A stretch of 64,000 bases of DNA from Verrucomicrobiaceae bacterium (GTDB lineage: Bacteria > Verrucomicrobiota > Verrucomicrobiia > Verrucomicrobiales > Verrucomicrobiaceae), in the NCBI GenBank assembly GCA_016795365.1, contig JAEUHN010000031.1, positions 124,001 to 188,000 on the forward strand, in the 5' to 3' direction. Below are positions 6,933 to 50,225 of this stretch, piece after piece. The translations under genes and the position numbers were made by a program. Positions within the stretch are counted from its first letter, which is position 1. The number at the start of each line of letters is the position of its first letter. The notes beneath the pieces were generated by a model, which saw nothing but the letters and a program-made list of their open reading frames with translations, searched no databases and was not told the DNA's origin.

Positions 6933-7693
6933 GGCTGGGGATTGAACGGTGTGATGATGACGGTGACCGGTGTCTCTTCCTTGGGCAAGATGGCAGTGTT
7001 GGGTGACCAAACATCGTCCAGGTCATTGCGCTGGCCTGGACAATTTATGACCGCCGTGACGTCGTAGTAGAGGCCGATGAAACTACCCAGCAGTTCCGCC
7101 GAGAAGCCAGATGCCTGGATCATCGAGCCATTGAAGACGAATTGCTTGATGTCGGTGGCGGGCTTCCTCTCCGGCTTCACCAGGAGGCATTCACCGAAGG
7201 GCCTGCGGATGAGTTTGTTGCCGTCCTTCCACTCGACTTCCAACTTCACGAAGTTCGCTCCCGGTGTTTTCGGTGCCGTCGATTCGCGTTTCTTGCGCAC
7301 AACTTCATCCTTCTCATAATCAAAGAGGCCGGTGTGCCCAGGCTGGTAGTTCGTGAGCAGCATCGCGACCTGAAGGTCGATGGCGCTCGCGGTTGTCTTC
7401 AGCAATGCTTCGTGAGTCTTGCCGTTCTCATGCACCACCGCGTATTCGATGTCGCCTTCACGCATGTTGAGGACGGAGGGGAAGCGCACTTCGCGAGTCT
7501 TGCCATTGAACTTGATCTGGCCCAGTTCGTATTCATCAGGACCCGTCTGCTTCAAGCGCTTCGCGGCAGCGGCGACATCAGGCACGGGCGCGCCGGGGTC
7601 GGCTTTACCTTGCTCAAACTTGGGACGAGGGGGCTCTTCCTGGGCGAGGGCCAGAACTGGCAGGGTCAACAGGGTGAGAAGAAGCGGGCGCAT
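6929..7693 (-). CDS. YdjY-domain exported protein
   Basis: The start is ATG 7693, which gives the signal peptide MRPLLLTLLTLPVLALAQ; upstream in-frame codons are part of the terminator region and are not coding. The mature protein carries the YdjY pattern: ELGQIKFNGKTREVRFPSVL, then MREGDIEYAVVHENGKTHEAL (residues about 60-100), in which the KTHE-A-L-L core is characteristic. YdjY proteins are periplasmic or lipoprotein domains found beside oxidoreductase and electron-transfer genes; their role is unknown. It is the first gene of a two-gene unit with the toroid-fold protein that follows. Confidence 0.75.
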   Translation of the reverse strand: MRPLLLTLLTLPVLALAQEEPPRPKFEQGKADPGAPVPDVAAAAKRLKQTGPDEYELGQIKFNGKTREVRFPSVLNMREGDIEYAVVHENGKTHEALLKTTASAIDLQVAMLLTNYQPGHTGLFDYEKDEVVRKKRESTAPKTPGANFVKLEVEWKDGNKLIRRPFGECLLVKPERKPATDIKQFVFNGSMIQASGFSAELLGSFIGLYYDVTAVINCPGQRNDLDDVWSPNTAILPKEETPVTVIITPFNPQP

Positions 7694-7758
7694 GGCTGAG
7701 GGAAGTGACAGCAGGCTGGGAATCTCTGCAAGGTGAAGGCTGGCTGCGGAATGGTCAC

Positions 7759-7794
7759 AAAAAATCCAGCGCAGCGGCCGCCGCTGCGCTGGAT
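7759..7794 (-). terminator. Strong intrinsic terminator of the kdsA-lpt-hpf operon
   Basis: A perfect 14-bp stem (7764-7777 with 7781-7794, loop of 3) reads on the minus strand as a GC-rich hairpin directly followed by five to six T residues. It lies 23 bp after the hpf stop codon, so it ends that transcript and insulates it from the YdjY unit. Confidence 0.9.
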
Positions 7795-7816
7795 GAATCA
7801 ATATCGTCCGAGTGGT

Positions 7817-8422
7817 CTAGGCGGCTCCGTTGCTGCCGTTCACTTCCGGCTCGATCAAGCCGTATTCACCATCCTTGCGACGATACAGGATCGCGAGCTT
7901 GTGCGTGTGCTGGTTGTGGAAGACCACGAAGTTGCGCTCGCTCATGGCCATGTCGAGCACGGCTTCATCAGGATAGAGCGGGCGAATCTTGTATTGCTCG
8001 TGATGGACGTAGGAGGGCTCGACGTGGTCGGCCTCGTTATCGACGAGTTTCTCTTCATGATACACGTGCTCTTCGAGATGCTTGATCGAGCCCTTGCGAG
8101 GACGATGGCTCTTGAGCATGCGGGTTTTGAACTTCCTCATGCGACGGGCGATCTTGGAGATCGTTTCGTCGATCGCGGCATAGATGTCGTGAGAAGTCGT
8201 GTCGGCTTCAATGACGATGTGATTGGCGCAGTGGAGAATGATTTCGGCGGACTGCTGATTGTGGTGGGTCTGAACGTCGAGGATGATCTTCGCGTCGATG
8301 ATTCGCGGGTAGTCAAGATGAAGCCCCTGAATTTTCTTCGTCGCGTAATCGCGCATGGCTTGGGTGACTTCCACATGGCGCCCCGTCACCGTAATGGGCA
8401 TGTTTACGTTATGCACTTGCAT
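7817..8422 (-). CDS. hpf: Ribosome hibernation promoting factor, long form
   Basis: The 201-residue protein has the N-terminal HPF/RaiA ribosome-binding domain (residues about 8-105: MPITVTGRHVEVTQAMRDYA, then EIILHCANHIVIEADTTSHDIY and the basic IARRMRKFKTRM helix) and a C-terminal dimerisation domain (about 140-190: YKIRPLYPDEAVLDMAMSERNFVVFHN). The long form alone drives 100S ribosome dimer formation and ribosome storage in stationary phase. AAGGA lies 9 nt before ATG 8422, which favours this start over the ATG 21 bp further in. It follows lptB by 73 bp and is the last gene before the strong terminator, the same neighbourhood as in many proteobacteria but without rpoN. Confidence 0.93.
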   Translation of the reverse strand: MQVHNVNMPITVTGRHVEVTQAMRDYATKKIQGLHLDYPRIIDAKIILDVQTHHNQQSAEIILHCANHIVIEADTTSHDIYAAIDETISKIARRMRKFKTRMLKSHRPRKGSIKHLEEHVYHEEKLVDNEADHVEPSYVHHEQYKIRPLYPDEAVLDMAMSERNFVVFHNQHTHKLAILYRRKDGEYGLIEPEVNGSNGAA

Positions 8423-8495
8423 GGCTTGGTTTCCTTATCCTCGGTTTTCCTCTTTGGTTTGTTTGGTGTGAGAGCCGGTTGCCCGGCCGGTTAAA

Positions 8496-9320
8496 CTACA
8501 TTTTGAAATTCTCGCCCAGGTAACGTTCGCGTGCCACGGGGTCATTGACAATCTCCTCGCGCGTTCCATGCAGAAGGATACGTCCGCCATAGATCAAGTA
8601 GGCACTGTCCACGATGTTTAATGTTTCGCGGACGTTGTGGTCGGTGATCAGGATGGCGAGGCCAGCGGCGCGCAACATGCGGATGATGTCCTGGATTTCG
8701 CCAACGGCGATGGGGTCAACGCCGCTGAACGGTTCATCGAGCATGAGCAGCTTGGGCTCTGTGACCAGACTGCGGGCGATGGTGAGACGACGTTTTTCAC
8801 CGCCCGAGAGCGTGATGGCGAGATTGTTCGCGACGTGGTCGATGCCGAACTTCTCCATCAGCAACTGACTCTGTTCCTCGCGTTCCTTCTTGGTAAAGTT
8901 TTGCGTCTCCATGACGGCGAGGATGTTTTCCCGCACGGTGAGGCGGCGGAAGATGGATTCCTCCTGTGGCAGGTAACCCATGCCGAGCCGGGCACGGACA
9001 TACATGGGCTCGTGCGTGACATCGTTGCCTTCAAAGATGACCCGTCCACCATTCGGGCGCACAAGGCCCACGATCATGTAGAACGAGGTGGTCTTGCCCG
9101 CTCCATTGGGACCCAGCAGACCGACAATCTCACCCGGCTTCACTTCGATATCGACACCGTTTACCACGGCACGGCCATCGTAGATTTTCTGCAAGCCACG
9201 AGTGTAGAGAAGGCTGTCGCTGGAGGGTAGGGGCGCGGCGACCTGCTGTGTGGCATTCACATCACCGTCCCACATGCGAGGAGACTGCGATGCACTGGCG
9301 TTTTTCGGGGACTTGGCCAT
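8496..9320 (-). CDS. lptB: LPS export ABC transporter ATP-binding protein LptB
   Basis: LptB powers extraction of LPS from the inner membrane together with LptFG. Walker A GPNGAGKT (residues 70-77), the Q-loop in YLPQEESIFR, the signature LSGGE (about 168-172), Walker B LLMLDEP (about 188-194) and the H-loop in ITDHNVRE are all intact, and the family-specific LITDHNVRETL motif separates it from other ABC ATPases. It is 274 residues long, about 30 more than E. coli LptB, because of a Ser/Gln/Ala-rich N-terminal extension of unknown use. It follows lptA by 24 bp. Confidence 0.95.
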   Translation of the reverse strand: MAKSPKNASASQSPRMWDGDVNATQQVAAPLPSSDSLLYTRGLQKIYDGRAVVNGVDIEVKPGEIVGLLGPNGAGKTTSFYMIVGLVRPNGGRVIFEGNDVTHEPMYVRARLGMGYLPQEESIFRRLTVRENILAVMETQNFTKKEREEQSQLLMEKFGIDHVANNLAITLSGGEKRRLTIARSLVTEPKLLMLDEPFSGVDPIAVGEIQDIIRMLRAAGLAILITDHNVRETLNIVDSAYLIYGGRILLHGTREEIVNDPVARERYLGENFKM

Positions 9321-9344
9321 GAAAAGAATCGGGAGGGATTGGGC

Positions 9345-10073
9345 CTATTGCTGACGACGAGGGGCAGGTGTGGGAATCGAGATGCCGCCGCCGGAAGCCG
9401 GCGCATTGGATGAGGCATCGCCTTTGCTCTTCTTCGACTTGTCGCTGCCCGCGAGTTCGGTGCGGGTGCGGCCTTTGACGCCGAACTTGCCATCCTTGGT
9501 GAGCGTCATCACGGTGCTGGCTTCCGCAGCGATGATCACGTTCTCGCCGTCCTGCACCTGCGGCCAGTCGCGCAAAATCATGTCGCCCGTTTTGCCGTCA
9601 TAGTAGGCATTGCGGCACTTGCCGATCTTGGACTTTCCTTCGGCGTCCGTCTTCACAATGACCACTTCTTTGCCAACGGCGGTGGCGTGATCGAGATTGT
9701 TCGCGTCACCTGGTTGATCGGACAGCGCAGTCTCGGGCTGCTGAGCGGAATTGCTCGCTGTGGCGGCTGCGTCTTTGGCCTTGGGCTTCTTTTCCTTCCT
9801 CATATAAACGGTGAAGGTGCCGTCGGTGGTGAGGTGAAATTGAGGCCCGTTGACCACCACATTGTTGGTGTAGGTGAAGACCGAGTTCTTGAGATCCATG
9901 TCCACGCTGTCGCAGTCGATGGTGGTCGGCTGTTTGGCCTTGGGCGTTGCTGGAGGAACGATGGAGGCTGGCTTGATGGGCTCAGGCGCGGGGGCTGGGG
10001 CAGGCTGCTGGGCGGGGATGCCGGAGGCCACGAGCACCAGGGCGGAGACGAACGAGAAGTAGTGCGGGCGCAT
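9345..10073 (-). CDS. lptA: LptA/OstA-like periplasmic LPS transport protein
   Basis: The 242-residue product has a signal peptide (MRPHYFSFVSALVLVASGIPAQ), a Pro/Ala-rich spacer (about 22-50) and an OstA-type beta-jellyroll starting with TTIDCDSVDMDLKNSVFTYT-NNVVV, the typical first strands of LptA. LptA builds the periplasmic bridge along which LPS slides to LptD. Position between lptC and lptB supports this over a stand-alone OstA protein. The tail is Lys/Ser-rich and low in complexity. Only 1 bp separates it from lptC. Confidence 0.8.
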   Translation of the reverse strand: MRPHYFSFVSALVLVASGIPAQQPAPAPAPEPIKPASIVPPATPKAKQPTTIDCDSVDMDLKNSVFTYTNNVVVNGPQFHLTTDGTFTVYMRKEKKPKAKDAAATASNSAQQPETALSDQPGDANNLDHATAVGKEVVIVKTDAEGKSKIGKCRNAYYDGKTGDMILRDWPQVQDGENVIIAAEASTVMTLTKDGKFGVKGRTRTELAGSDKSKKSKGDASSNAPASGGGISIPTPAPRRQQ

Positions 10074-10074
10074 A

Positions 10075-10692
10075 TTATTTGGCGGGGGGCTTCGGAGTGG
10101 TTCCGGCAGGTGTGGGCTGGACGGCGGCCTGCGGGTCGGCGGGAACGGTCGCTGCGGTTTTTTCGGGGGTGGGGGAACTGAGCTGAGACAAATCGAAGAT
10201 CACCATGTGAACATGTCCCTTCATCTGGCCGCGAGAAGTCGTCGTGTCAAAGGTCATGCTATCGCCTTCGATCTGAAAGTCCGCACGGCGCACGCGGCTG
10301 CGCTTGTCGCTGACCAGCTGCTTGGTGTCCATGAAGTAAGTGGCCGTTGGCAGGTCCACCCGAATGGTGTCCTTGGGCTCATTGCCGTAGAGTTGAATCG
10401 TGACTCCCTCGCCGAAGAGTCGATTGCCTTCGATCCGGGTGAGGGCATCGGCTTCCACAAACGAAGTCCGCTTTCCCTGATCGAACCCGGGATTTCGCAC
10501 CTTCACGCTGCGCACGCCTTCCTGGATTAGCTTGCCGATCGATTCCAGGCTGGAAACCCCTTCCGCTGGCTCCTCCGTGGCGGCAGCGGCTGGAGCTGGC
10601 TTTGGTTTCGTCCCTTTGGGGGTTGGCTTGTCTTGCGCAAACAGGCCACATGCCGTGATGAGGGCGATGGCGGTGAGGCTAAAGGTTCTCAT
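10075..10692 (-). CDS. lptC: LptC-like LPS export protein
   Basis: The 205-residue protein has a signal or anchor sequence (MRTFSLTAIALITACGLFAQ), a low-complexity Lys/Pro/Ala spacer (about 22-45) and an LptC/OstA-like beta-jellyroll with RTSFVEADALTRIEGNRLFG, TIRVDLPTATYFMDTKQLVS and ADFQIEGDSMTFDTTTSRGQ (residues about 75-170). LptC hands LPS from LptBFG to LptA. The similarity is structural in style rather than strong in sequence, and the name rests also on its place between kdsA and lptA. It overlaps kdsA by 14 bp. Confidence 0.7.
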   Translation of the reverse strand: MRTFSLTAIALITACGLFAQDKPTPKGTKPKPAPAAAATEEPAEGVSSLESIGKLIQEGVRSVKVRNPGFDQGKRTSFVEADALTRIEGNRLFGEGVTIQLYGNEPKDTIRVDLPTATYFMDTKQLVSDKRSRVRRADFQIEGDSMTFDTTTSRGQMKGHVHMVIFDLSQLSSPTPEKTAATVPADPQAAVQPTPAGTTPKPPAK

Positions 10693-11509
10693 GAGCGATG
10701 GCGTGAAGCCTGAGAAGTTGGTTCAAGAGGGCGGGCAGGTCCGCCAAAGGAATCTGGTTGGGCCCGTCGGACAGCGCTTTTGAAGGGTCGATGTGAGTCT
10801 CGATGAATACGCCATCAACTCCAGTGGCCACGGCGGCACGAGCCAGCACCGGGGCTAGCTTTCCATCGCCACCCGTCGTCAAACCCTGGCCGCCAGGACG
10901 CTGCACCGAGTGGGTGGCATCGAACACGACCCGGTAGCCCAGCTCGCGCATCCAGTAGAGGCTGCGCATGTCGGCAACGAGATTGTTGTAGCCAAAGGTG
11001 GTGCCGCGCTCGGTGAAAAGGAACTGATGGCAGCCGACCGAGAGCAACTTGTCCGCAATGTTCTTCACGTCCCAGGGTGCGAGGAACTGTCCCTTCTTCA
11101 CATTCACCACCCGCCCTGATTCGCCAGCCGCGATGATAAGATCCGTCTGGCGGCAAAGGAATGCTGGGATCTGAAGCAAGTCGATGAACTCGGCGGCAAT
11201 GCGCACCTCCTCGACGGAGTGAACATCTGTCGTCACGGGCACGCCCATTTCTTTGCCGATCTCGGCGAGCAACCGACATCCGTCTGCGCAGTCCATGCCA
11301 CGATAGCTGCTGATCGCGCTCCGGTTCGCTTTGTCGTAGGACGCCTTGAACACCCAACGCAAGCCTTGCGGATCGGCGATCGCCTTGATCCGCCGGGCCA
11401 TGTCCCAGACAAAATCCGCACTCTCGATCACACAGGGACCGAGAACGAAAAAAGGCTGCTGGCCGTCCACCCGCACTCCGCCGATCTGCACCACTGGTAG
11501 CTCCGCCAT
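10679..11509 (-). CDS. kdsA: 3-deoxy-8-phosphooctulonate synthase (Kdo-8-phosphate synthase)
   Basis: KdsA condenses arabinose 5-phosphate with phosphoenolpyruvate to Kdo 8-phosphate, the precursor of the LPS inner-core sugar Kdo. The TIM-barrel motifs are clear: FFVLGPCVIES at the start, WVFKASYDKANRSA, a central QIPAFLCRQTDLI, NVKKGQFLAPWD, FDATHSVQRPGGQG and the closing GVFIETHIDPSKALSDGPNQ. The family choice between metal-dependent and metal-independent forms cannot be settled by eye. The start is taken as ATG 11509 (MAELPVVQIGG) by fit to the family; an in-frame GTG at 11533 has the better ribosome site (GAGG 6 nt upstream) and is a real alternative. First gene of the lpt operon. Confidence 0.93.
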   Translation of the reverse strand: MAELPVVQIGGVRVDGQQPFFVLGPCVIESADFVWDMARRIKAIADPQGLRWVFKASYDKANRSAISSYRGMDCADGCRLLAEIGKEMGVPVTTDVHSVEEVRIAAEFIDLLQIPAFLCRQTDLIIAAGESGRVVNVKKGQFLAPWDVKNIADKLLSVGCHQFLFTERGTTFGYNNLVADMRSLYWMRELGYRVVFDATHSVQRPGGQGLTTGGDGKLAPVLARAAVATGVDGVFIETHIDPSKALSDGPNQIPLADLPALLNQLLRLHAIAHENL

Positions 11510-11661
11510 GATCCTAGCTGGTTGATGTTTCACCGAAAACCTCGCCGCCGACGTGTGCCGGACGGACCTCAGTCCTTGGTTTATGGGTGAAGAATACAGA
11601 CTTGCTCATGGAAATACAATCCTCGAATCAGGGTAGCACAATAGTTGCCAATCCAGGAGCC

Positions 11662-12192
11662 CTAGCCCAGGCGTCCGCCGGACTTTACAAAGTCGATAAT
11701 CTTCCGGTCATCGTCTCCGGCGGCCCAGGTAACACGCAAAAAATCAGCGGGATGAATCCGGTGTTTCGCGAAGAAGGCACGATCCCCACCACAACCATAC
11801 ATCGTGTCGGGATCCATCTCACCCCGCAGTTTCGCCCTTGCCTTCGTGATTAGGCGAGGCAGCCAGGGAATGCCGTCCACTTCGGCGGGCTTGGGTGGCA
11901 ATTCGCTCGGGGACACCGTGTGGGTGCTTTTCACCCCTTTTTGAATCACGTTGAAATAGTCACGCCGCACGGCGGCAACCAGGAGCGCCGTCTCCACCGA
12001 GGGGCCGTCGTTGTAGCGGCAATGGTCATCGACAAAATCAAAGAACTCCTGGCCGGTGTAGCCGATGGCAGCGAGGAACTCGAGGTCGGCATCCGAATAC
12101 CAGGATTCCTGGCGTGTCTGTCCCGAACGGTGCAGCTGTGCGCAACGTTCGAAAAGCTGGCGGAAAGTCGTGTCCCAAGTAAGCGAATTCAT
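11662..12192 (-). CDS. DUF5069 family protein
   Basis: The 176-residue protein starts at ATG 12192 (MNSLTWDTTFRQLFERC); the frame runs on upstream for 66 codons but that part has no coding character. DUF5069 is recognised from the central IPWLPRLITKARAKLRGEM segment and the tail in which a FLRVTWAAGDDD region follows. A second member of the family (62157-62594) has the matching VWLPRFIAKVRRHHEGRL. The family is common in Verrucomicrobia and has no known function. It is divergent from the beta-barrel gene at 12347. Confidence 0.7.
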   Translation of the reverse strand: MNSLTWDTTFRQLFERCAQLHRSGQTRQESWYSDADLEFLAAIGYTGQEFFDFVDDHCRYNDGPSVETALLVAAVRRDYFNVIQKGVKSTHTVSPSELPPKPAEVDGIPWLPRLITKARAKLRGEMDPDTMYGCGGDRAFFAKHRIHPADFLRVTWAAGDDDRKIIDFVKSGGRLG

Positions 12193-12346
12193 CGGCGCGA
12201 CTGATAGGCAGTGTGGGCCAGTTGCACAGCAAAAAAACCACGAGCCTTTGATAGGGGACCAGGCGCTGAATTCCTGCTTGCCCCAAAAGCCCAGTTTGGG
12301 TAAACAGAACCCGTCGAATATCGACAACACAAACCTACATAGAAAC

Positions 12347-42530: not shown

Positions 42531-43193
42531 TCACCGCTCCACGAGCCGGTAGCCAATGCCAGGCTCGTTTTGGATTTCCAGGCGGCTGCCTTCGAGCTTT
42601 TTGCGAAGGTGGTTGGCATAGACGCGGAGGTAGTTGGACTGCTGCTCGGACTGCGGGCCCCAGACGGCGCGGAGGAGTTGCTTGAGCGTGACGACTTTGC
42701 CCGCGTGCTTCACGAGCTGGGCGAGCATGGAGTATTCGGTGGGCGTGAGCTTCAAAGGCTCGCCGGAGAGCGTGGCGGCGTGGTGGGCGGGATCGAGGGC
42801 CAGCGGGCCGATTTCGAGATTTGCGGCCTCGTCGTTGCTGTGTCGGCGCTGGATGGCCGTGAGCCGGGCGAGGAGTTCGGCGGTGCTGAAGGGCTTGGTG
42901 ACGTAGTCGTCGGCTCCGGCGTCGAAGGCGGCGAGCTTCATCGACTCCTGGTCGCGCACGCTGAGGATGAGCACGGGCACGGGGCTCCATTCGCGCAGTC
43001 GCTTCAGCACCTCCACACCGTCCATGTCTGGCAGGCCGAGGTCGAGGATGATTGCATCGGGTTTGTGAAACACGGCGGCTTGCAGGCCGAGGGTGCCTTT
43101 TTCAGCCTCACGGACGGTGTAGCCCTTCGACGCCAGCGCCAGCTTGAGCAGGCGGCGGATCTGGATTTCGTCGTCGATGATGAGCGCGGTCAT
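42531..43193 (-). CDS. kdpE: KDP operon response regulator KdpE
   Basis: KdpE is the OmpR-type activator of the potassium-scavenging kdp genes. The receiver domain (residues 1-118) has the acidic pocket IIDDE, the phosphoacceptor Asp51 in IILDLGLPDMDG, and Lys in DDYVTKPFS; the winged-helix DNA-binding domain (about 130-218) has LTPTEYSMLAQLVKHAGKVV and the typical C-terminal YLRVYANHLRKKLE and GIGYRLVE. It overlaps kdpD by 4 bp (ATGA). Last gene of the operon. Confidence 0.95.
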   Translation of the reverse strand: MTALIIDDEIQIRRLLKLALASKGYTVREAEKGTLGLQAAVFHKPDAIILDLGLPDMDGVEVLKRLREWSPVPVLILSVRDQESMKLAAFDAGADDYVTKPFSTAELLARLTAIQRRHSNDEAANLEIGPLALDPAHHAATLSGEPLKLTPTEYSMLAQLVKHAGKVVTLKQLLRAVWGPQSEQQSNYLRVYANHLRKKLEGSRLEIQNEPGIGYRLVER

Positions 43194-44446
43194 GGTGTAA
43201 AACGAACTTCCAAGTTCGTTGGCGAAGGGAGGTCATGGGGAACGAATTTGGAAGTTCGTTTTACTTCGATCACAAACTCCGCGCCGCCTTCGGGGTGGTT
43301 TCGAGCGGTAATGTCACCACCGAGGGCCTGCACAAAGCCTCGCGCGATGGTGAGACCGAGCCCGGTGCCGCCAGCGGGTGAGCCGGGAGCGCGGCAGAAC
43401 TTCTCAAAGACGGATTTCTCCATGCCGGGTGGCAAACCGGGGCCGTGATCGCGAAGAATGAGTCGCAGTGTTTGATCGACCAACGTGGCGCTGATTTCGA
43501 TCTTCGTCCCCTCCAGCGTGTAGATCGCCGCATTGTGCAGGATGTTGGCGAGAGCCTGCGTGAGCAGCGCGTGATCGAGTTTCACCAGCGGAAGATAATC
43601 CGGCAGATGAAGTGTCACGGGATGCGACTCCAGCGGCTTGCCGACGGCCTGACGAGCGGCGTTGATGACATCGCTTAAATCACACCAGTCGAGGTGTGGC
43701 TTGAGCACATCGGATTCGAGCTGGGTCATGTGCAGCAGGTTGTCCACCACGCGCTGGAGGCGCTGAGAGGCGGTGGTGATCTCGTCGAGGTAAGGGCCAG
43801 AAGTGCCGCTCATGCCTTCCACAGCGGCATTGATCACGGCGATGGGCGTTTTGAGTTCGTGCGAGATGCTGTCGAGCAATGTGCGATGGAGTTTCTCGGA
43901 GTGGGCGAGCATCTCGGCATGGCTCACGGCTTGGATGAAGTGCTCTTTTTCCAACACAAGCGCGAGTTGCAGCGCGAAGGCCTCGATCATCTGCCGCGTG
44001 GCAAAGTCGAGCCGTTGATCGCGATGAAACTGCACGCCGAGCACACCGATGAGCGAGGTGGCCGTTTGCAACGGAAACCACGTCGCAGCGGACTCGGGCA
44101 AGGTGTCGGTGTGGCGACCGGCTGCTTGTTTGTTTCCGTAAACCCAAGTGACGACGCCCCATTCTTTGGCGCTGGGCTGGAAGGTGCTCGCCGGATGCGC
44201 CACCGACGGGAGCGAGCGGTCGTTCTCGCGCACGACGAGGGCTGTGTCGGCCCGCAGCAGCTCATTGATCGTGCGCAGCGCCTCGGCGAGACCTTTGGCG
44301 GGCTCGGCGGCGAGTGCGGCGCTTTGCGTGACTCGCAGGAGAGCATCGGTTTGACGTGCGCGGCGTCGCTCCGCGGCCTCTCGCAGCCGCAGACGGCTGG
44401 TGAGGCTGCCCATGCTCAGCGCGACGATGAAGAAGAGGCCGAACAT
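43190..44446 (-). CDS. kdpD: KdpD C-terminal half: histidine kinase part of a split sensor
   Basis: The 418-residue frame holds the rest of KdpD: MFGLFFIVALSMGSLTSRLR (end of the fourth membrane helix), a GAF-like domain (about 45-175), HisKA with phospho-His in LLDSISHELKTPIAV (about 215), and the ATPase domain with N box ALANILHNAAIYT, G1 LRDHGPGLP and G2 GTGLGLTIARG. The frame continues in register upstream: eight codons (INKAEDWI) and then one TAA separate it from the KdpD N-terminal gene. The last 22 residues (from KRTSKFV) are made by an inverted repeat (43197-43264). Without readthrough or reinitiation this product would lack the K-sensing N-terminal part. Confidence 0.85.
   Translation of the reverse strand: MFGLFFIVALSMGSLTSRLRLREAAERRRARQTDALLRVTQSAALAAEPAKGLAEALRTINELLRADTALVVRENDRSLPSVAHPASTFQPSAKEWGVVTWVYGNKQAAGRHTDTLPESAATWFPLQTATSLIGVLGVQFHRDQRLDFATRQMIEAFALQLALVLEKEHFIQAVSHAEMLAHSEKLHRTLLDSISHELKTPIAVINAAVEGMSGTSGPYLDEITTASQRLQRVVDNLLHMTQLESDVLKPHLDWCDLSDVINAARQAVGKPLESHPVTLHLPDYLPLVKLDHALLTQALANILHNAAIYTLEGTKIEISATLVDQTLRLILRDHGPGLPPGMEKSVFEKFCRAPGSPAGGTGLGLTIARGFVQALGGDITARNHPEGGAEFVIEVKRTSKFVPHDLPSPTNLEVRFTP
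43197..43264. repeat. Inverted repeat at the 3' end of kdpD
   Basis: Two 24-bp arms (43197-43220, GTAAAACGAACTTCCAAGTT...; 43241-43264, its reverse complement with one mismatch) are separated by 20 bp. Each arm is itself a palindrome (AACGAACTT-CC-AAGTTCGTT). The element provides the last residues and stop of kdpD, and ends 4 bp from the kdpE start codon. Confidence 0.8.
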
Positions 44447-44470
44447 GATCCAGTCCTCGGCCTTGTTGAT

Positions 44471-45871
44471 TTAAAACGTGAACTGCGGCGGGATGAAGAA
44501 GAAGTTCCAGCACAAGGCGCTGAGCGTCGCCATCAGCAAAACGGGTCCGCGACTGAAGCGCAGTGCCGCGAGCACCACCGCGATCAAAAAGACCAGTGCG
44601 ACAACCATATAGCCAGTGAAGCTCGTGATAGCCCAGCACAAGCTGGCAATGGAGAAGACCAAAACGAGCACCCAACTGTATTCGCCGATTAAAGTGGTCG
44701 AAACAGGCTCTCGCACGGCTGCACGGCTTTTTTCCGACGAGGCGAGCGGACGCACGACGCACACGTCGATGTCGCCGCTGCCGAGGATGAGCTGATCGGC
44801 GAGTGATTTCCGCCACCACGACGGTTTGTTTGGCTTGCCTACGACGATCTGCGTCACGTTGCGCTCGCGGGCAACTTGCAGCAAGGCGTCGGCGATGTGC
44901 TCACCCGTGGCGGAAACGACCTCGCCGCCGAGTTTTCGTGCGAGTGCGAGTGCGTTCGAGAGGCGCTGCTGTTCATCGCTGTTGGGTTCAGTGAGTCCTT
45001 GCACCCAAACGACAAGCCAGGGGCAGTTTAGGCGCGTGGCTGCGCGGCGTGTCCAGCGGATCAGGCTTTCAGCATACGGACTCGGGCCAACGCCGACCAT
45101 GAGCCGTGCGTTGGTCTTCCAAGGGGTGCTAACGCGCTTCAAGCGGCGGATGTCCTCCAGATCACGATCCACTTGCTCGGCAGTGAAGCGCAGGGCCAGC
45201 TCACGCAGGGCGGTGAGATTGCCTTCTTTGAAGAAATGGGAGACAGCGTGCTCGGCACGCTCGCCGAGATACACTTTTCCATCCGCCATGCGCTCCAGCA
45301 GCTTTTCGACGCTGAGGTCGATGAGCTGGATCTCATGCGCGACATCGAGGATCGAATCGGGCACTGTTTCAGCGATGGCGACACCGCTGATCTGCCGCAC
45401 GATGTCCACCTGGCTCTCGATGTGCTGGACGTTGAGCGTGGTGTAAACGTCGATGCCCGCGTCGATCAGCTCCAGCACATCCTGATAGCGCTTCGCGTGG
45501 CGCGAGCCGGGCGCGTTCCTGTGGGCCAGCTCATCGACCAGCACGAGTTGCGGCCTTTGCGCGAGCACGGCGTCGATGTCGAACTCCTCCAGCGTGAAGC
45601 CGCGATGTTCGAGCTGCCTGCGCGGCAAAACGCGCATGCCTTCCAGCAGCGCCGCGGTTTCGGAGCGTCCATGCGTCTCGATGATGCCTGCGAGCACGTC
45701 GATGCCTTCTTTGAGCCGCTGGCGTGCCGTTTGAAGCATGGCGTAAGTTTTGCCCACGCCGGGACACATGCCGAGGAAGATGTGGAGCTTGCCGGATTTC
45801 GACTTCACATCCTCCAGGCGCATTTGCGCGAGCAGAGCGTCGGGATCGGGGCGTGTGTCGTCGGTGTTCAC
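44471..45871 (-). CDS. kdpD: KdpD N-terminal half: K+ sensor, USP and membrane part
   Basis: The 466-residue product has the KdpD domain with Walker A GMCPGVGKT (about residues 34-42), LVLVDELAHRNAPGSRH (about 110-126) and GIDVYTTLNVQHIES, a universal-stress-protein domain (about 245-375) and three to four membrane helices of the DUF4118 region (about 385-460). It ends with NFFFIPPQFTF followed by TAA; in normal KdpD proteins the same FTF is followed by about ten residues and the kinase half, which here lies in the same frame after the stop. Start is GTG 45871, supported by the RPDPDALLAQ segment that matches the N-terminus of KdpD proteins. Confidence 0.9.
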   Translation of the reverse strand: MNTDDTRPDPDALLAQMRLEDVKSKSGKLHIFLGMCPGVGKTYAMLQTARQRLKEGIDVLAGIIETHGRSETAALLEGMRVLPRRQLEHRGFTLEEFDIDAVLAQRPQLVLVDELAHRNAPGSRHAKRYQDVLELIDAGIDVYTTLNVQHIESQVDIVRQISGVAIAETVPDSILDVAHEIQLIDLSVEKLLERMADGKVYLGERAEHAVSHFFKEGNLTALRELALRFTAEQVDRDLEDIRRLKRVSTPWKTNARLMVGVGPSPYAESLIRWTRRAATRLNCPWLVVWVQGLTEPNSDEQQRLSNALALARKLGGEVVSATGEHIADALLQVARERNVTQIVVGKPNKPSWWRKSLADQLILGSGDIDVCVVRPLASSEKSRAAVREPVSTTLIGEYSWVLVLVFSIASLCWAITSFTGYMVVALVFLIAVVLAALRFSRGPVLLMATLSALCWNFFFIPPQFTF

Positions 45872-45882
45872 GGCTGGGAGGA

Positions 45883-46467
45883 TTACTTCAGAGCATCGAG
45901 CGCAAAATTCAACTTCAGCACGTTCACGCCCGTTTCGCCCAAAATGCCGAGGTCGGGCTTCGCGGTGTTCGAGGCAATGATTTCCTTCACTTTCTCGATG
46001 CTGAGGTTGCGTGCTTTGGCGACTCGGGCGGTTTGCAGCTCGGCGTTCTTCGGGCTGATGTGCGGATCAAGGCCGCTGGCGGAGGCCGTGACTGCATCGG
46101 CCGGCACGGTGGCATCGGCGGCGAGGCCGTTCTTGGTGCGATACGCGACGATGCGTTCTTTGATCGCATCGTGGAGCTTTTGAGAGGTGGGACCGAGATT
46201 GCTGCCGCTGGAACTGGCGGCGTCATGACCACTGCCCGCAGCGCTGGGGCGCGGGTGGAAGTAGTTCTCGGCGGCGAAGTTCTGGCTGAGCAGTGCGGAG
46301 CCTCGCACGGTGCCGTCCTTGTCGGTGATGAGGCTGCCACTGGCTTTCTCTTTGAAAGCAGACTGCGCCACGGTGGTGATGAGCAGCGGATAAGCACCGC
46401 AAGTAACGGCCGCGAGCACGAGCGTAGCCATGATGGCAGGGCGGAGTTCAGAGAAGAGGGCTTTCAT
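45883..46467 (-). CDS. kdpC: Potassium-transporting ATPase subunit C
   Basis: KdpC is the single-span partner that stabilises the KdpFABC complex. The 194-residue protein has one N-terminal membrane helix (about 9-31, PAIMATLVLAAVTCGAYPLL) and the conserved periplasmic domain: GSALLSQNFAAENYFHPRPS, VTASASGLDPHISPKNAELQ, RVAKARNLS and GETGVNVLKLNFAL at the end. The spacer SGHDAASSSGSNLGPTS is as in other KdpC proteins. It is 3 bp after kdpB and 11 bp before kdpD. Confidence 0.96.
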   Translation of the reverse strand: MKALFSELRPAIMATLVLAAVTCGAYPLLITTVAQSAFKEKASGSLITDKDGTVRGSALLSQNFAAENYFHPRPSAAGSGHDAASSSGSNLGPTSQKLHDAIKERIVAYRTKNGLAADATVPADAVTASASGLDPHISPKNAELQTARVAKARNLSIEKVKEIIASNTAKPDLGILGETGVNVLKLNFALDALK

Positions 46468-46470
46468 GGA

Positions 46471-48492
46471 TTAGGCGAGGTGAAGGGTGGCGACGATGAC
46501 ATCAATGGCCTTAATGCCGATGAAGGGGATGAGGATGCCTCCGAGGCCATAGACGAGCAGGTTGCGCTGGAGCACGGCGGCGGCACCCATCGGTCGGTAG
46601 GGCACGCCTTTGAGCGCGAGAGGGATGAGGGCGATGATGATGAGCGCGTTGAAGATGACGGCGCTCAAAATGGCGCTCTGCGGACTGGCGAGGCCCATGA
46701 CGTTCAGCGGCGAGATGGCGGGAAAAGTCGCCATGAGCATCGCAGGGATGATGGCGAAGTATTTGGCGATGTCGTTGGCGATGCTGAAGGTCGTCAGCGA
46801 GCCGCGTGTCATGAGCAGCTGCTTCCCGATTTCGACCATCTCAATGAGCTTCGTGGGATTGCTGTCGAGATCGACCATGTTGCCGGCTTCACGGGCGGCT
46901 TGAGTGCCGGTGTTCATGGCGACGCCGACATCGGCCTGCGCCAAAGCGGGGGCGTCATTGGTGCCGTCGCCGGTCATGGCGACGAGGTGTCCCTCGGCCT
47001 GTTCGGCGCGGATGCGGCGTAGTTTGTCCTCGGGCGTGGCCTGGGCCATGAAATCATCCACACCGGCCTCGGCAGCGATGGCAGCGGCGGTCATGGGATT
47101 GTCGCCGGTGATCATGACGGTGCGGATGCCCATTTTGCGGAGTTGGGCAAATCGCTCCTTGATGCCGCCTTTGACGACGTCTTTGAGCTCCACGACGCCG
47201 AGCACGCGATTTCCCTCCGCGACGACGAGCGGCGTGCGTCCGGCGCGTGACGCGGCTTCGACGGTTTTCGTGATTTCAGCCGGATAAACGCCTCCTAGGG
47301 CTTCGACGTGTGCTTTGATCGAATCCGCCGCACCTTTGCGGATGCTGCGGCCATCGAGATCGACACCGCTCATGCGTGTCTGAGCCGTGAAAGGCACAAA
47401 GTTGGCATGGGGAGCGGCAAGATCGCGTCCGCGGAGGTTGAAGCGTTCTTTGGCCAAAACGACGATGCTGCGGCCTTCGGGTGTTTCATCGGCGAGCGAG
47501 GCGAGTTGCGCAGCATCGGCGAGTTGTTGCTCGGTGATGCCGGGCGCGGGACGGAAGTCGGAGGCCATGCGATTGCCGATCGTGATGGTGCCCGTTTTGT
47601 CGAGCAGGAGCACGTCGATGTCGCCCGCAGCCTCGACGGCGCGGCCGGAGGTAGCCATGACGTTGCGACGAATGAGACGGTCGATGCCGCTGATGCCGAT
47701 GGCGCTCAACAAGCCGCCAATCGTGGTCGGAATGAGGCACACGAGCAACGCGACGAGCACCGGCGTGGTGAAGGTGACACCTGAGTAGAGGCCGAAGGGC
47801 TTCAGCGTGATCGTTACGAGCAAAAAAATGAGCGTCATCGCGGACAGCAGGATGGTCAGCGCGATCTCATTCGGTGTCTTCTGGCGTTTCGCCCCCTCCA
47901 CCATCGAAATCATGCGGTCGATGAAGGTGTTGCCCTTTTCCGAGGTGATGCGGATCACGATGCGGTCGCTGATGACCTTTGTGCCGCCCGTGACGGCGCT
48001 GCGGTCGCCACCACTCTCGCGGATGACGGGCGCGGACTCTCCCGTGATAGCGGCTTCATCGACACTGGCGATGCCTTCGATGACCTCGCCATCGGCGGGG
48101 ATCACATCGCCTGTTTCGCAGACGACGATGTCGCCTTTCTCCAACGCAGGAGCGGGCACGGCAATCTCCACGCCGTTTTTGATGCGTCGGGCCATGGTGT
48201 CTTTGCGTGCGGCACGCAGGCTGGCGGCTTGCGCCTTGCCACGGCCTTCGGCGACGGCTTCCGCGTAGTTGGCGAAAAGCACGGTGAACCATAGCCAGAC
48301 GGAAAGCTGGATGATGAAACCATGATCCGTCTGGGTGGTGAAGACGCTCACCGTGGTGAGCACCGCGCCGACGAGCGTGACGAACATGACGGGGTTCTTC
48401 ACCATCAGGCGCGGATCGAGCTTCTGAAACGCGCCGCCGATGGCGGGCGCGAGGATCGAAGCATCAAAGAGAGATGTGGGTTTGTGGGACAT
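46471..48492 (-). CDS. kdpB: Potassium-transporting ATPase ATP-binding subunit B
   Basis: KdpB is the P-type ATPase that energises K+ uptake through KdpA. The 673-residue chain has the actuator loop with TGES ([14 protein letters not shown]), the phosphorylation site in [15 protein letters not shown], the nucleotide-binding KGAAD, and the hinge [16 protein letters not shown], plus about seven membrane helices. Length and motifs are normal. It lies 20 bp after kdpA and 3 bp before kdpC. Confidence 0.97.
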
Positions 48493-48512: not shown

Positions 48513-50225
48513 TTAGAACAAGACGCCTTTGCCCATCAGGAAGTGCTCAACGATGGGGCCTAAGGCGAGCGCAGGGAGGAAGTTCAGGGCACCGACGAGC
48601 AGCACGATGCCGATGAGCAGCACGGTGAAGGTCGCGCCATTCACCGGAAAGGTTCCGGCGCTCGGTGGCACGGTTTGCTTTCCAGCGAGAGATCCGGCGA
48701 GCGCCATGATCGGCACAATCATGAGGAAGCGACCGATGAGCATGGCGAGGCCGAGCGTGGTGTTATACCAGGGTGTGTTGGCCGTGAGTCCGGCGAAGGC
48801 GCTGCCATTGTTGCCGGTGGCGGAGCTGTAGGCATACAGCATCTCGCTGAAGCCATGCTGGCCGCTGTTGTTGAGGCCTGCGACACCCCAGTCGCTCACA
48901 CAAGCCCAGGCGGTGAAGCCGAGAATGCTGGCGGTGAGGATGAGCAGCGTGAGCATGGCCAGCTTCACCTCCTTCGCCTGAATCTTCTTGCCGAGATACT
49001 CGGGCGTTCGGCCCACCATGAGCCCCGCGATGAACACGGCGAGAATCACGAACACGAGCATGCCATACAACCCCGCGCCGACACCACCGACGACAACTTC
49101 ACCCAGCTCGATCATGAACAGCGGAACGAGCCCACCGATGGGCGTGAACGAATCATGCATCGAGTTCACCGCGCCACACGACGCGGCGGTGGTGATGGTG
49201 GCGAAGAGAGACGAGTTGAAGACGCCGAAGCGCACTTCCTTGCCCTCCATGTTGCCACCCGCGGCGGCGATGCCGAGCTGCTGATGGATCGGATTGCCGA
49301 CAGCTTCATAGTGAGCACACACCAGCACGCCGCCGATAAAGAGGAAAATCATCGCCGCCCACACGGCCCAGCCGTGCCCCTGATTCTTCACCATGCGTCC
49401 AAGGTAGTAGGTGAGGCCGCTGCCGATGGCGAAGATCGAGAACATCTGCGCGAAGTTCGACAGTGGCGTTGGATTTTCGAAGGGATGCGCGGCGTTCGCA
49501 TTGAAGAACCCGCCGCCATTGGTGCCGAGCATTTTGATGGCGACCTGCGATGCCACGGGGCCTTGCGCGATGATTTGCTCTGCGCCTTCGAGTGTCTTCA
49601 CCTTGGTGTAGGCATCGAAGTTTTGGATCATGCCCTGCGAAACCAGGAAGATCGCGAAGACCGCACAGATCGGCAGCAGGAGGTAGTAAGTGACGCGAAC
49701 GAGGTCAGACCAGAAGTTGCCGAGTGTCTTCGCCGAGCTACGCGCGATGCCACGCACCAGTGCCGCAGCGATCTCGATGCCAACTGCGGCAGATACGAAG
49801 TTGTGAAACGTTAGCCCCACCATCTGCGAAAAATAACTCAGGGTGCTTTCGCCACCGTAGCTCTGCCAGTTGGTGTTCGTGGTGAAGCTCACGGCCGTAT
49901 TGAAGGCCAGATGATGACTCAGGCCGGGCAGACCCTGCGGATTCAGTGGCAGCAGGCCTTGCAGGCGCAGAATCGCGTAAGTGAAAACGATGCCGATGAA
50001 GCTGAAGGCCAGCATGGCAAAGGTGTAGCCTTTCCATGTCTGCTCCCGCTGCGGGTCGATGCCGATAAGCCGGTAAGTGAGCCGCTCGACCGGTTTGAGC
50101 AACGGATCGAGCCAGGTGCGACCATTCACATCGAGCACCTGCACGAGATACAGGCCGATCGGCTTGGTGATGATCGTGAGCAGCCCGAGAAAGAAGGCGA
50201 ATTGAAGCCAGTCATTCGTTTGCAT
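48513..50225 (-). CDS. kdpA: Potassium-transporting ATPase potassium-binding subunit A
   Basis: KdpA is the K+-selective channel-like subunit, related to Trk/Ktr superfamily transporters. The 570-residue protein has about ten membrane helices and the four pore loops with filter motifs including [35 protein letters not shown] and [13 protein letters not shown], plus the [11 protein letters not shown] segment. ATG 50225 gives the family length. It follows kdpF by 10 bp. Confidence 0.97.

What the first reader, a model, noticed from the sequence alone, without database searches (positions are those of the whole stretch)
44444..44473. kdpD split by a single in-frame TAA
The N-terminal half ends ...QFTF-TAA and the same frame continues INKAEDWI-MFGLFFIV with intact KdpD sequence. 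No frameshift is needed. Either a sense codon became TAA (sequencing error or recent mutation), the two halves are made separately through reinitiation at the ATG 8 codons later, or the stop is read through. A K+ sensor with the sensing and kinase halves as two proteins in the membrane would be unusual.
Basis: seen in the sequence. Interest (0 to 1): 0.55.

Follow-up and report, generated by a model that had tools for sequence, protein, structure and literature searches.

The report
Potassium-sensor gene with lone stop codon
An otherwise ordinary potassium-sensor gene (kdpD) carries one premature stop codon that no examined relative shares, so it is most likely a very recent mutation or a sequence error rather than a deliberately split sensor.

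Summary
On the minus strand kdpD has a TAA at 44473-44471; the same frame is open before it (466 codons) and after it (426 codons). It is not a conserved split. All 51 distinct relatives' kdpD sequences that cover this codon have a sense codon there, and none has an internal stop in its aligned part. The three nearest (92, 87, 85% amino-acid identity) have a tyrosine codon, one base from TAA. Of 66 matches in 68 genomes of the family and 103 DUF4118 matches in 387 genomes of the phylum, only this genome's kdpD shows a stop. Both halves look constrained along this genome's own branch, so the stop is very young, an error, or both halves still work. The downstream ATG with GAGG in front is ordinary coding sequence, present in 30 of the 51 relatives, so it did not arise for reinitiation. 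Known KdpD systems with separate serine-kinase and histidine-kinase chains (PMC11018627) keep the membrane part with the histidine kinase; this stop falls between membrane helices three and four. Mutation and base-call error cannot be told apart without reads.

The parts
44474..45871 (-). kdpD 5' part: KdpD domain (with GMCPGVGKT, which I read as its P-loop), Usp domain, and the first three of four predicted membrane helices of DUF4118
   Evidence: Pfam PF02702 E 8e-93, PF00582, PF13493 positions 1-69; hydropathy peaks at residues 401-419 (overlapping 394-412), 419-437, 442-460. The strict pattern GxxxxGK[ST] was not found; the P-loop was read by eye.
44471..44473 (-). premature TAA at codon 467
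   Evidence: sense codon in 51 of 51 distinct relatives covering it
43193..44446 (-). kdpD 3' part from the next ATG: fourth membrane helix, GAF, HisKA, HATPase_c (stop codon TGA at 43192-43190)
   Evidence: PF13492, PF00512 E 1e-11, PF02518 E 9.9e-21; hydropathy peak at residues 474-492, HELKTP at 671, GTGLGL at 835
44444..44458 (-). GAGG (44458-44455), 8 bases, then ATG (44446-44444): possible but not specially evolved reinitiation site
   Evidence: sequence; GAG-GAN at codons 472-473 with ATG at 476 in 30 of 51 relatives
42531..43193 (-). kdpE response regulator, intact, its ATG overlapping the kdpD stop
   Evidence: PF00072, PF00486; best NCBIfam match is KdpE NF007820, below its cut-off
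45883..46467 (-). kdpC, intact
   Evidence: TIGR00681 over cut-off
46471..48492 (-). kdpB, intact, TGES at residue 150
   Evidence: TIGR01497 over cut-off; motif
48513..50225 (-). kdpA, intact
   Evidence: TIGR00680 over cut-off

Best explanation
An ordinary kdpABCDE operon in which one codon of kdpD, a tyrosine codon in the three nearest relatives, reads TAA in this one genome. The change is a very recent nonsense mutation or a base-call/consensus error. Shown: the stop, its absence in all relatives examined, and intact, constrained sequence on both sides. Inferred: if the stop is real, the cell makes a 466-residue N-terminal protein (serine-kinase and Usp domains with three membrane helices) and little or no histidine-kinase half, apart from possible low-level reinitiation at 44446; control of kdpABC would then be weakened or deregulated. 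I split the probability as about 0.5 real recent mutation and 0.4 sequence error.
For: 51 of 51 distinct relatives' kdpD covering codon 467 have a sense codon, and none has a stop before residue 860 in its aligned part (loci; 47 of the 51 align over nearly the whole length). The nearest three have a tyrosine codon one base from TAA. Family: 66 matches in 50 of 68 genomes (own included), only this kdpD with a stop. Phylum: 103 DUF4118 matches in 74 of 387 genomes (own included), only this one with a stop (one match, in G164, ends at profile position 66, before the site). Own-branch changes since L053, outgroup L032: C half 10 nonsynonymous to 36 synonymous against 11:23 on L053's branch; N half 25:51 against 26:52; outgroup L033: C half 7:37 against 11:25, N half 35:56 against 19:53; no Fisher test between the two branches is significant (p 0.31, 1.0, 0.18, 0.13). 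kdpA, B, C, E intact. Of 20 same-frame ORF pairs tested among 336 found in 464 kb, only kdpD has a Pfam domain across the stop. TAA is a normal terminator here: kdpB ends in it, and 35 of 194 open stretches of 400 codons or more (some of these may be shadow frames) do.
Against: No reads were available, so mutation and error are not separated. The nearest relative is 92% identical in protein and 90% in DNA, so no genome of the same species was seen; a stop shared within the species cannot be excluded. Constraint on the C half fits a still-working split as well as a young stop. With outgroup L033 the N half shows more nonsynonymous changes on this branch (35) than on L053's (19) (not significant, p 0.13). 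The search for interrupted genes elsewhere is coarse: 12 of the 20 pairs tested had no Pfam match at all.
Confidence: 0.9

Rival explanations
1. Functional split: ribosomes stop at TAA and restart at ATG 44446 (or start there on their own), giving an N-terminal serine-kinase/Usp/three-helix protein and a C-terminal one-helix histidine kinase that associate in the membrane.
For: ATG 24 bases after the stop, in frame, with GAGG 8 bases upstream; both halves constrained. Separate serine-kinase and histidine-kinase chains exist in other species (PMC11018627, section 8). An E. [quoted passage not shown]
Against: No relative examined shares the stop. The ATG and the GAGG are coding sequence present in 30 of 51 relatives without a stop there, so nothing was evolved for restart. 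The cut lies inside DUF4118, between helices 3 and 4, unlike the common two-chain form. Truncated E. coli KdpD derivatives could not repress kdpFABC at higher K+ (PMC2714519, passage).
Confidence: 0.06
2. Readthrough of TAA yields full-length KdpD.
For: The frame continues intact; constraint on the C half.
Against: kdpB ends in TAA, as do 35 of 194 long open stretches in the 464 kb examined, so it is not generally reassigned. No relative examined has a stop here, so no programmed readthrough is conserved. Suppressor tRNAs were not searched for.
Confidence: 0.03
3. Old pseudogene: kdpD lost its function long ago and is decaying.
For: A stop is present; kdpD and kdpE pseudogenes are on record in Francisella (PMC6584805, passages). 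A relative in the order, G044 (L025), has a KdpD whose match ends at residue 649, before the kinase, with no kinase match in the 1.5 kb held beyond it, so loss of the histidine-kinase part does occur nearby.
Against: Single lesion in 893 codons; no excess of nonsynonymous changes in the C half on this branch (10:36 against 11:23); rest of the operon intact.
Confidence: 0.02

Closest known systems
Full-length KdpD tandem serine/histidine kinase (E. coli type; NCBIfam NF007793)
   Same: Same domain order over the whole read-through length and the same operon neighbours
   Different: One premature TAA at codon 467, seen in this genome alone; score below the NF007793 cut-off
KdpD in two chains: KdpD/Usp serine kinase plus TM/GAF/DHpCA histidine kinase (PMC11018627, sections 8 and 9)
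   Same: Serine-kinase and histidine-kinase parts would be on separate polypeptides
   Different: The cut here is inside the membrane domain (three helices on one side, one on the other) and is not shared by any relative examined; it looks like an accident to a full-length gene
Short KdpD without kinase (KdpD_non_kinase NF038185; Deinococcus geothermalis KdpD)
   Same: The N-terminal fragment contains the KdpD and Usp domains
   Different: The fragment carries three extra helices, scores below the NF038185 cut-off (333 against 550 bits), and the histidine-kinase sequence is still intact downstream

Membership tests
Full-length KdpD | KdpD, Usp, DUF4118, GAF, HisKA, HATPase_c in this order in one frame | tested here: met
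   All found, in order, across the two parts; the frame holds one stop
Full-length KdpD | Uninterrupted reading frame | tested here: not met
   TAA at 44473-44471
Full-length KdpD | NCBIfam NF007793 cut-off | tested here: not met
   662.4 bits for the read-through protein against 1123; intact relatives were not scored for comparison
Two-chain KdpD (serine kinase and histidine kinase apart) | Membrane part wholly on the histidine-kinase chain | tested here: not met
   Stop lies between hydropathy peaks 442-460 and 474-492; the N-terminal part holds DUF4118 positions 1-69 of 107
Two-chain KdpD (serine kinase and histidine kinase apart) | Split kept among relatives | tested here: not met
   0 of 51 relatives have it; 0 of the 65 other matches
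Two-chain KdpD (serine kinase and histidine kinase apart) | Both chains made as proteins | not testable with these tools
   No expression data
Nonsense mutation / pseudogene or sequence error | Stop unique to one genome, uninterrupted copies in relatives | tested here: met
Nonsense mutation / pseudogene or sequence error | Stop present in the reads or the organism | not testable with these tools
   No reads; assembly anonymous

The most novel reading that the evidence does not exclude
The stop is real and tolerated because reinitiation at ATG 44446, helped by a GAGG that the conserved coding sequence happens to supply, makes a one-helix histidine-kinase chain which pairs with the three-helix serine-kinase chain: a first step of splitting a tandem kinase, caught at birth and inside its membrane domain.
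Probability: 0.05. Interest if true: 0.45.

Novelty: already known. Interest (0 to 1): 0.12.

Why it matters
As found, it matters little: a lone stop codon in one assembly, a caution for annotation. If the stop were real and tolerated, it would show that the serine-kinase and histidine-kinase halves of KdpD can be uncoupled in one step, which bears on how the one-chain and two-chain KdpD forms turn into each other.

Tried and rejected
Conserved split: looked for the same stop among relatives, family and phylum; not found. The stops reported inside L003, L004, L005 and L027 lie at query residues 880-884, near the gene's end, so they are no parallel.

General stop reassignment or a badly sequenced genome: tested on 464 kb (about 7% of the assembly); 20 of 336 same-frame pairs were sent to Pfam. 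My codon score separated poorly (a known gene boundary, kdpB/kdpC, and many frames without any Pfam match ranked high), so the choice of the 20 is rough: ranks 1-10, seven of ranks 11-20 (left out: kdpB/kdpC, one in L066 and one at window 47782), and three lower ones, kdpD (rank 23) among them. Eight of the 20 had a Pfam match; in seven the domains end before or begin after the stop, and in kdpD alone one spans it. The other 12 say nothing.

A mobile copy: no match of kdpD DNA in the plasmid collection (megablast). A second KdpD in the genome: PF02702 finds one only; a short DUF4118 histidine kinase with its own regulator lies on contig C24. A frameshift was rejected because the frame is the same on both sides. 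Suppressor tRNAs were not searched for. The paper on the E. coli C-terminal KdpD fragment (PMC1426542) is not held; I know it only through passages in PMC2714519.

Full report
Observation. On the minus strand the kdpD gene begins at GTG 45871. Its frame is closed by TAA at 44473-44471 and continues open to a TGA at 43192-43190. The N-terminal part has 466 codons; after the stop come eight codons and then ATG 44446, which would give 418 residues. Read through, the span is one KdpD of 893 codons with one stop, at codon 467.

Anatomy. The N-terminal part holds the KdpD domain (PF02702, E 8e-93), a Usp domain and profile positions 1-69 of DUF4118. The C-terminal part holds GAF_3, HisKA and HATPase_c. 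Read through, DUF4118 matches over its whole length across the stop. Hydropathy places three membrane helices before the stop (peaks 401-419, with an overlapping one at 394-412, 419-437, 442-460) and one after (474-492). So the stop does not fall between 'sensor' and 'kinase' but inside the membrane domain. The neighbours kdpA, kdpB and kdpC pass their NCBIfam equivalog cut-offs. kdpE gives its best match to the KdpE model, below that model's cut-off, as does the read-through KdpD to its own model. PF02702 finds no other KdpD in the genome.

Relatives. From a search of 57 genomes, the own one included, and the GTDB contig scan I had 60 loci besides the window's own (L003-L062). L058 did not reach the junction, L062 was not hit at E 1e-30, and seven repeated another locus; 51 distinct sequences were left (two of them, L024 and L056, may be pieces from one assembly). 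All 51 have a sense codon at 467 and none has a stop before residue 860 in its aligned part. 47 of the 51 align over nearly the whole length; L024, L028 and L056 are cut at or near contig ends, and the match of L025 (G044) ends at residue 649, before the kinase, with no further match in the 1.5 kb held beyond. That last one is a relative with a shortened KdpD, but cut elsewhere. The residue at 467 is variable: His 22, Tyr 10, Lys 5, Glu 4, and others. The three nearest, L053 (92%), L032 (87%) and L033 (85%), have a tyrosine codon, one base from TAA. Wider: in the family, 66 matches to the junction region, all covering the codon, in 50 of 68 genomes, one with a stop, this one. In the phylum sample, 103 DUF4118 matches in 74 of 387 genomes, one with a stop inside the domain, this one; the match in G164 ends at profile position 66, before the site, and only up to 12 candidates per genome were scored there.

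Age of the stop. Changes since the split from L053, placed with L032 as outgroup, are in the C half (residues 468-870) 10 nonsynonymous to 36 synonymous on this genome's branch and 11:23 on L053's; in the N half (1-466) 25:51 and 26:52. With L033 as outgroup the C half gives 7:37 and 11:25, the N half 35:56 and 19:53. Sites where all three differ (16 in the C half with either outgroup; 32 and 23 in the N half) and two gapped columns were left out. None of the four comparisons between the two branches is significant (Fisher p 0.31, 1.0, 0.18, 0.13). So the C half shows no sign of relaxed constraint. A rough bound, with site numbers that I put in by hand (920 and 285; counted afterwards as 905 and 304), gives dN/dS of 0.06-0.09 for the C half on this branch, upper 95% limit 0.11-0.15. 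This leaves only a small part of the branch for free decay. It does not exclude that the C half still works.

Reinitiation. GAGG stands 8 bases before ATG 44446. Both are codons of a conserved stretch. GAG-GAN with the ATG occurs in 30 of the 51 relatives and the ATG alone in 43. So a restart is possible, but nothing was shaped for it.

Background. In 464 kb of this genome (the window plus 400 kb) I listed 336 same-frame pairs of open stretches of 100 codons or more and sent 20 to Pfam. Eight had a Pfam match, and only in the kdpD pair does a domain run across the stop. TAA ends kdpB and 35 of 194 open stretches of 400 codons or more, some of which may be shadow frames, so it is a normal stop.

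Literature. Silberberg et al. 2024 (PMC11018627; abstract, section 8 and part 1 of 2 of section 9 read) report that KdpD's N-terminal domain is an atypical serine kinase acting on KdpB, and that some species have serine and histidine kinase on separate chains, most commonly a KdpD/Usp chain and a TM/GAF/DHpCA chain, while others have a truncated histidine-kinase part. E. coli truncation results I saw only as passages of PMC2714519: KdpD/1-395 alone causes constitutive kdpFABC expression; several truncated derivatives answer K+ limitation but cannot repress at higher K+. PMC6584805 (passages) lists kdpD and kdpE pseudogenes in Francisella. A search for kdpD with 'pseudogene' and 'premature stop' gave 8 papers, of which I read passages of that one only; the listings were otherwise not read.

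Conclusion. The stop is a private, single-codon difference in an otherwise ordinary kdpD. It is a very recent mutation or a sequence error. If real, the expected effect (inference) is a membrane-anchored serine-kinase fragment and loss or strong weakening of the KdpD histidine kinase. The short DUF4118 kinase on contig C24 might partly stand in (inference, untested).

Noticed in passing
L081 (G000:C24) 7400-12285: A Kup-type K+ transporter (TIGR00794 over cut-off), one further ORF, then a short DUF4118 histidine kinase (441 aa, resembling the C-terminal half of KdpD) and a KdpE-like regulator. In L053 a similar kinase sequence follows kdpE directly. By length (343-513 aa frames) and identity, such short relatives occur in 34 of 68 genomes of the family.
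   Followed up: partly
43200-43262: An inverted pair of a palindromic about 20-base sequence (AACGAACTTCCAAGTTCGTT type) forms the last codons of kdpD just before kdpE; L053, L032 and L033 have a similar tail (DNA seen for L053). The exact core occurs once in 464 kb of this genome.
   Followed up: partly
43193-45871: Against L053, synonymous divergence is 0.50 in the N half of kdpD but 0.29 in the C half, while against L032 it is 0.59 and 0.77: perhaps recombination within the gene.
   Followed up: no
L026 (G001:C275): The only other genome of the same genus examined carries a KdpD only 48% identical, while genomes of genus g9 in the same family reach 81% and G054 of another family in the order 85% over residues 1-800, and G438 (g9) 93% over the junction region: perhaps horizontal transfer of kdp.
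   Followed up: no
L025 (G044:C6): KdpD whose match to the query ends at residue 649, just before the histidine kinase (open frame 714 aa), with no kinase match in the 1.5 kb held beyond it: perhaps a kinase-less KdpD.
   Followed up: partly
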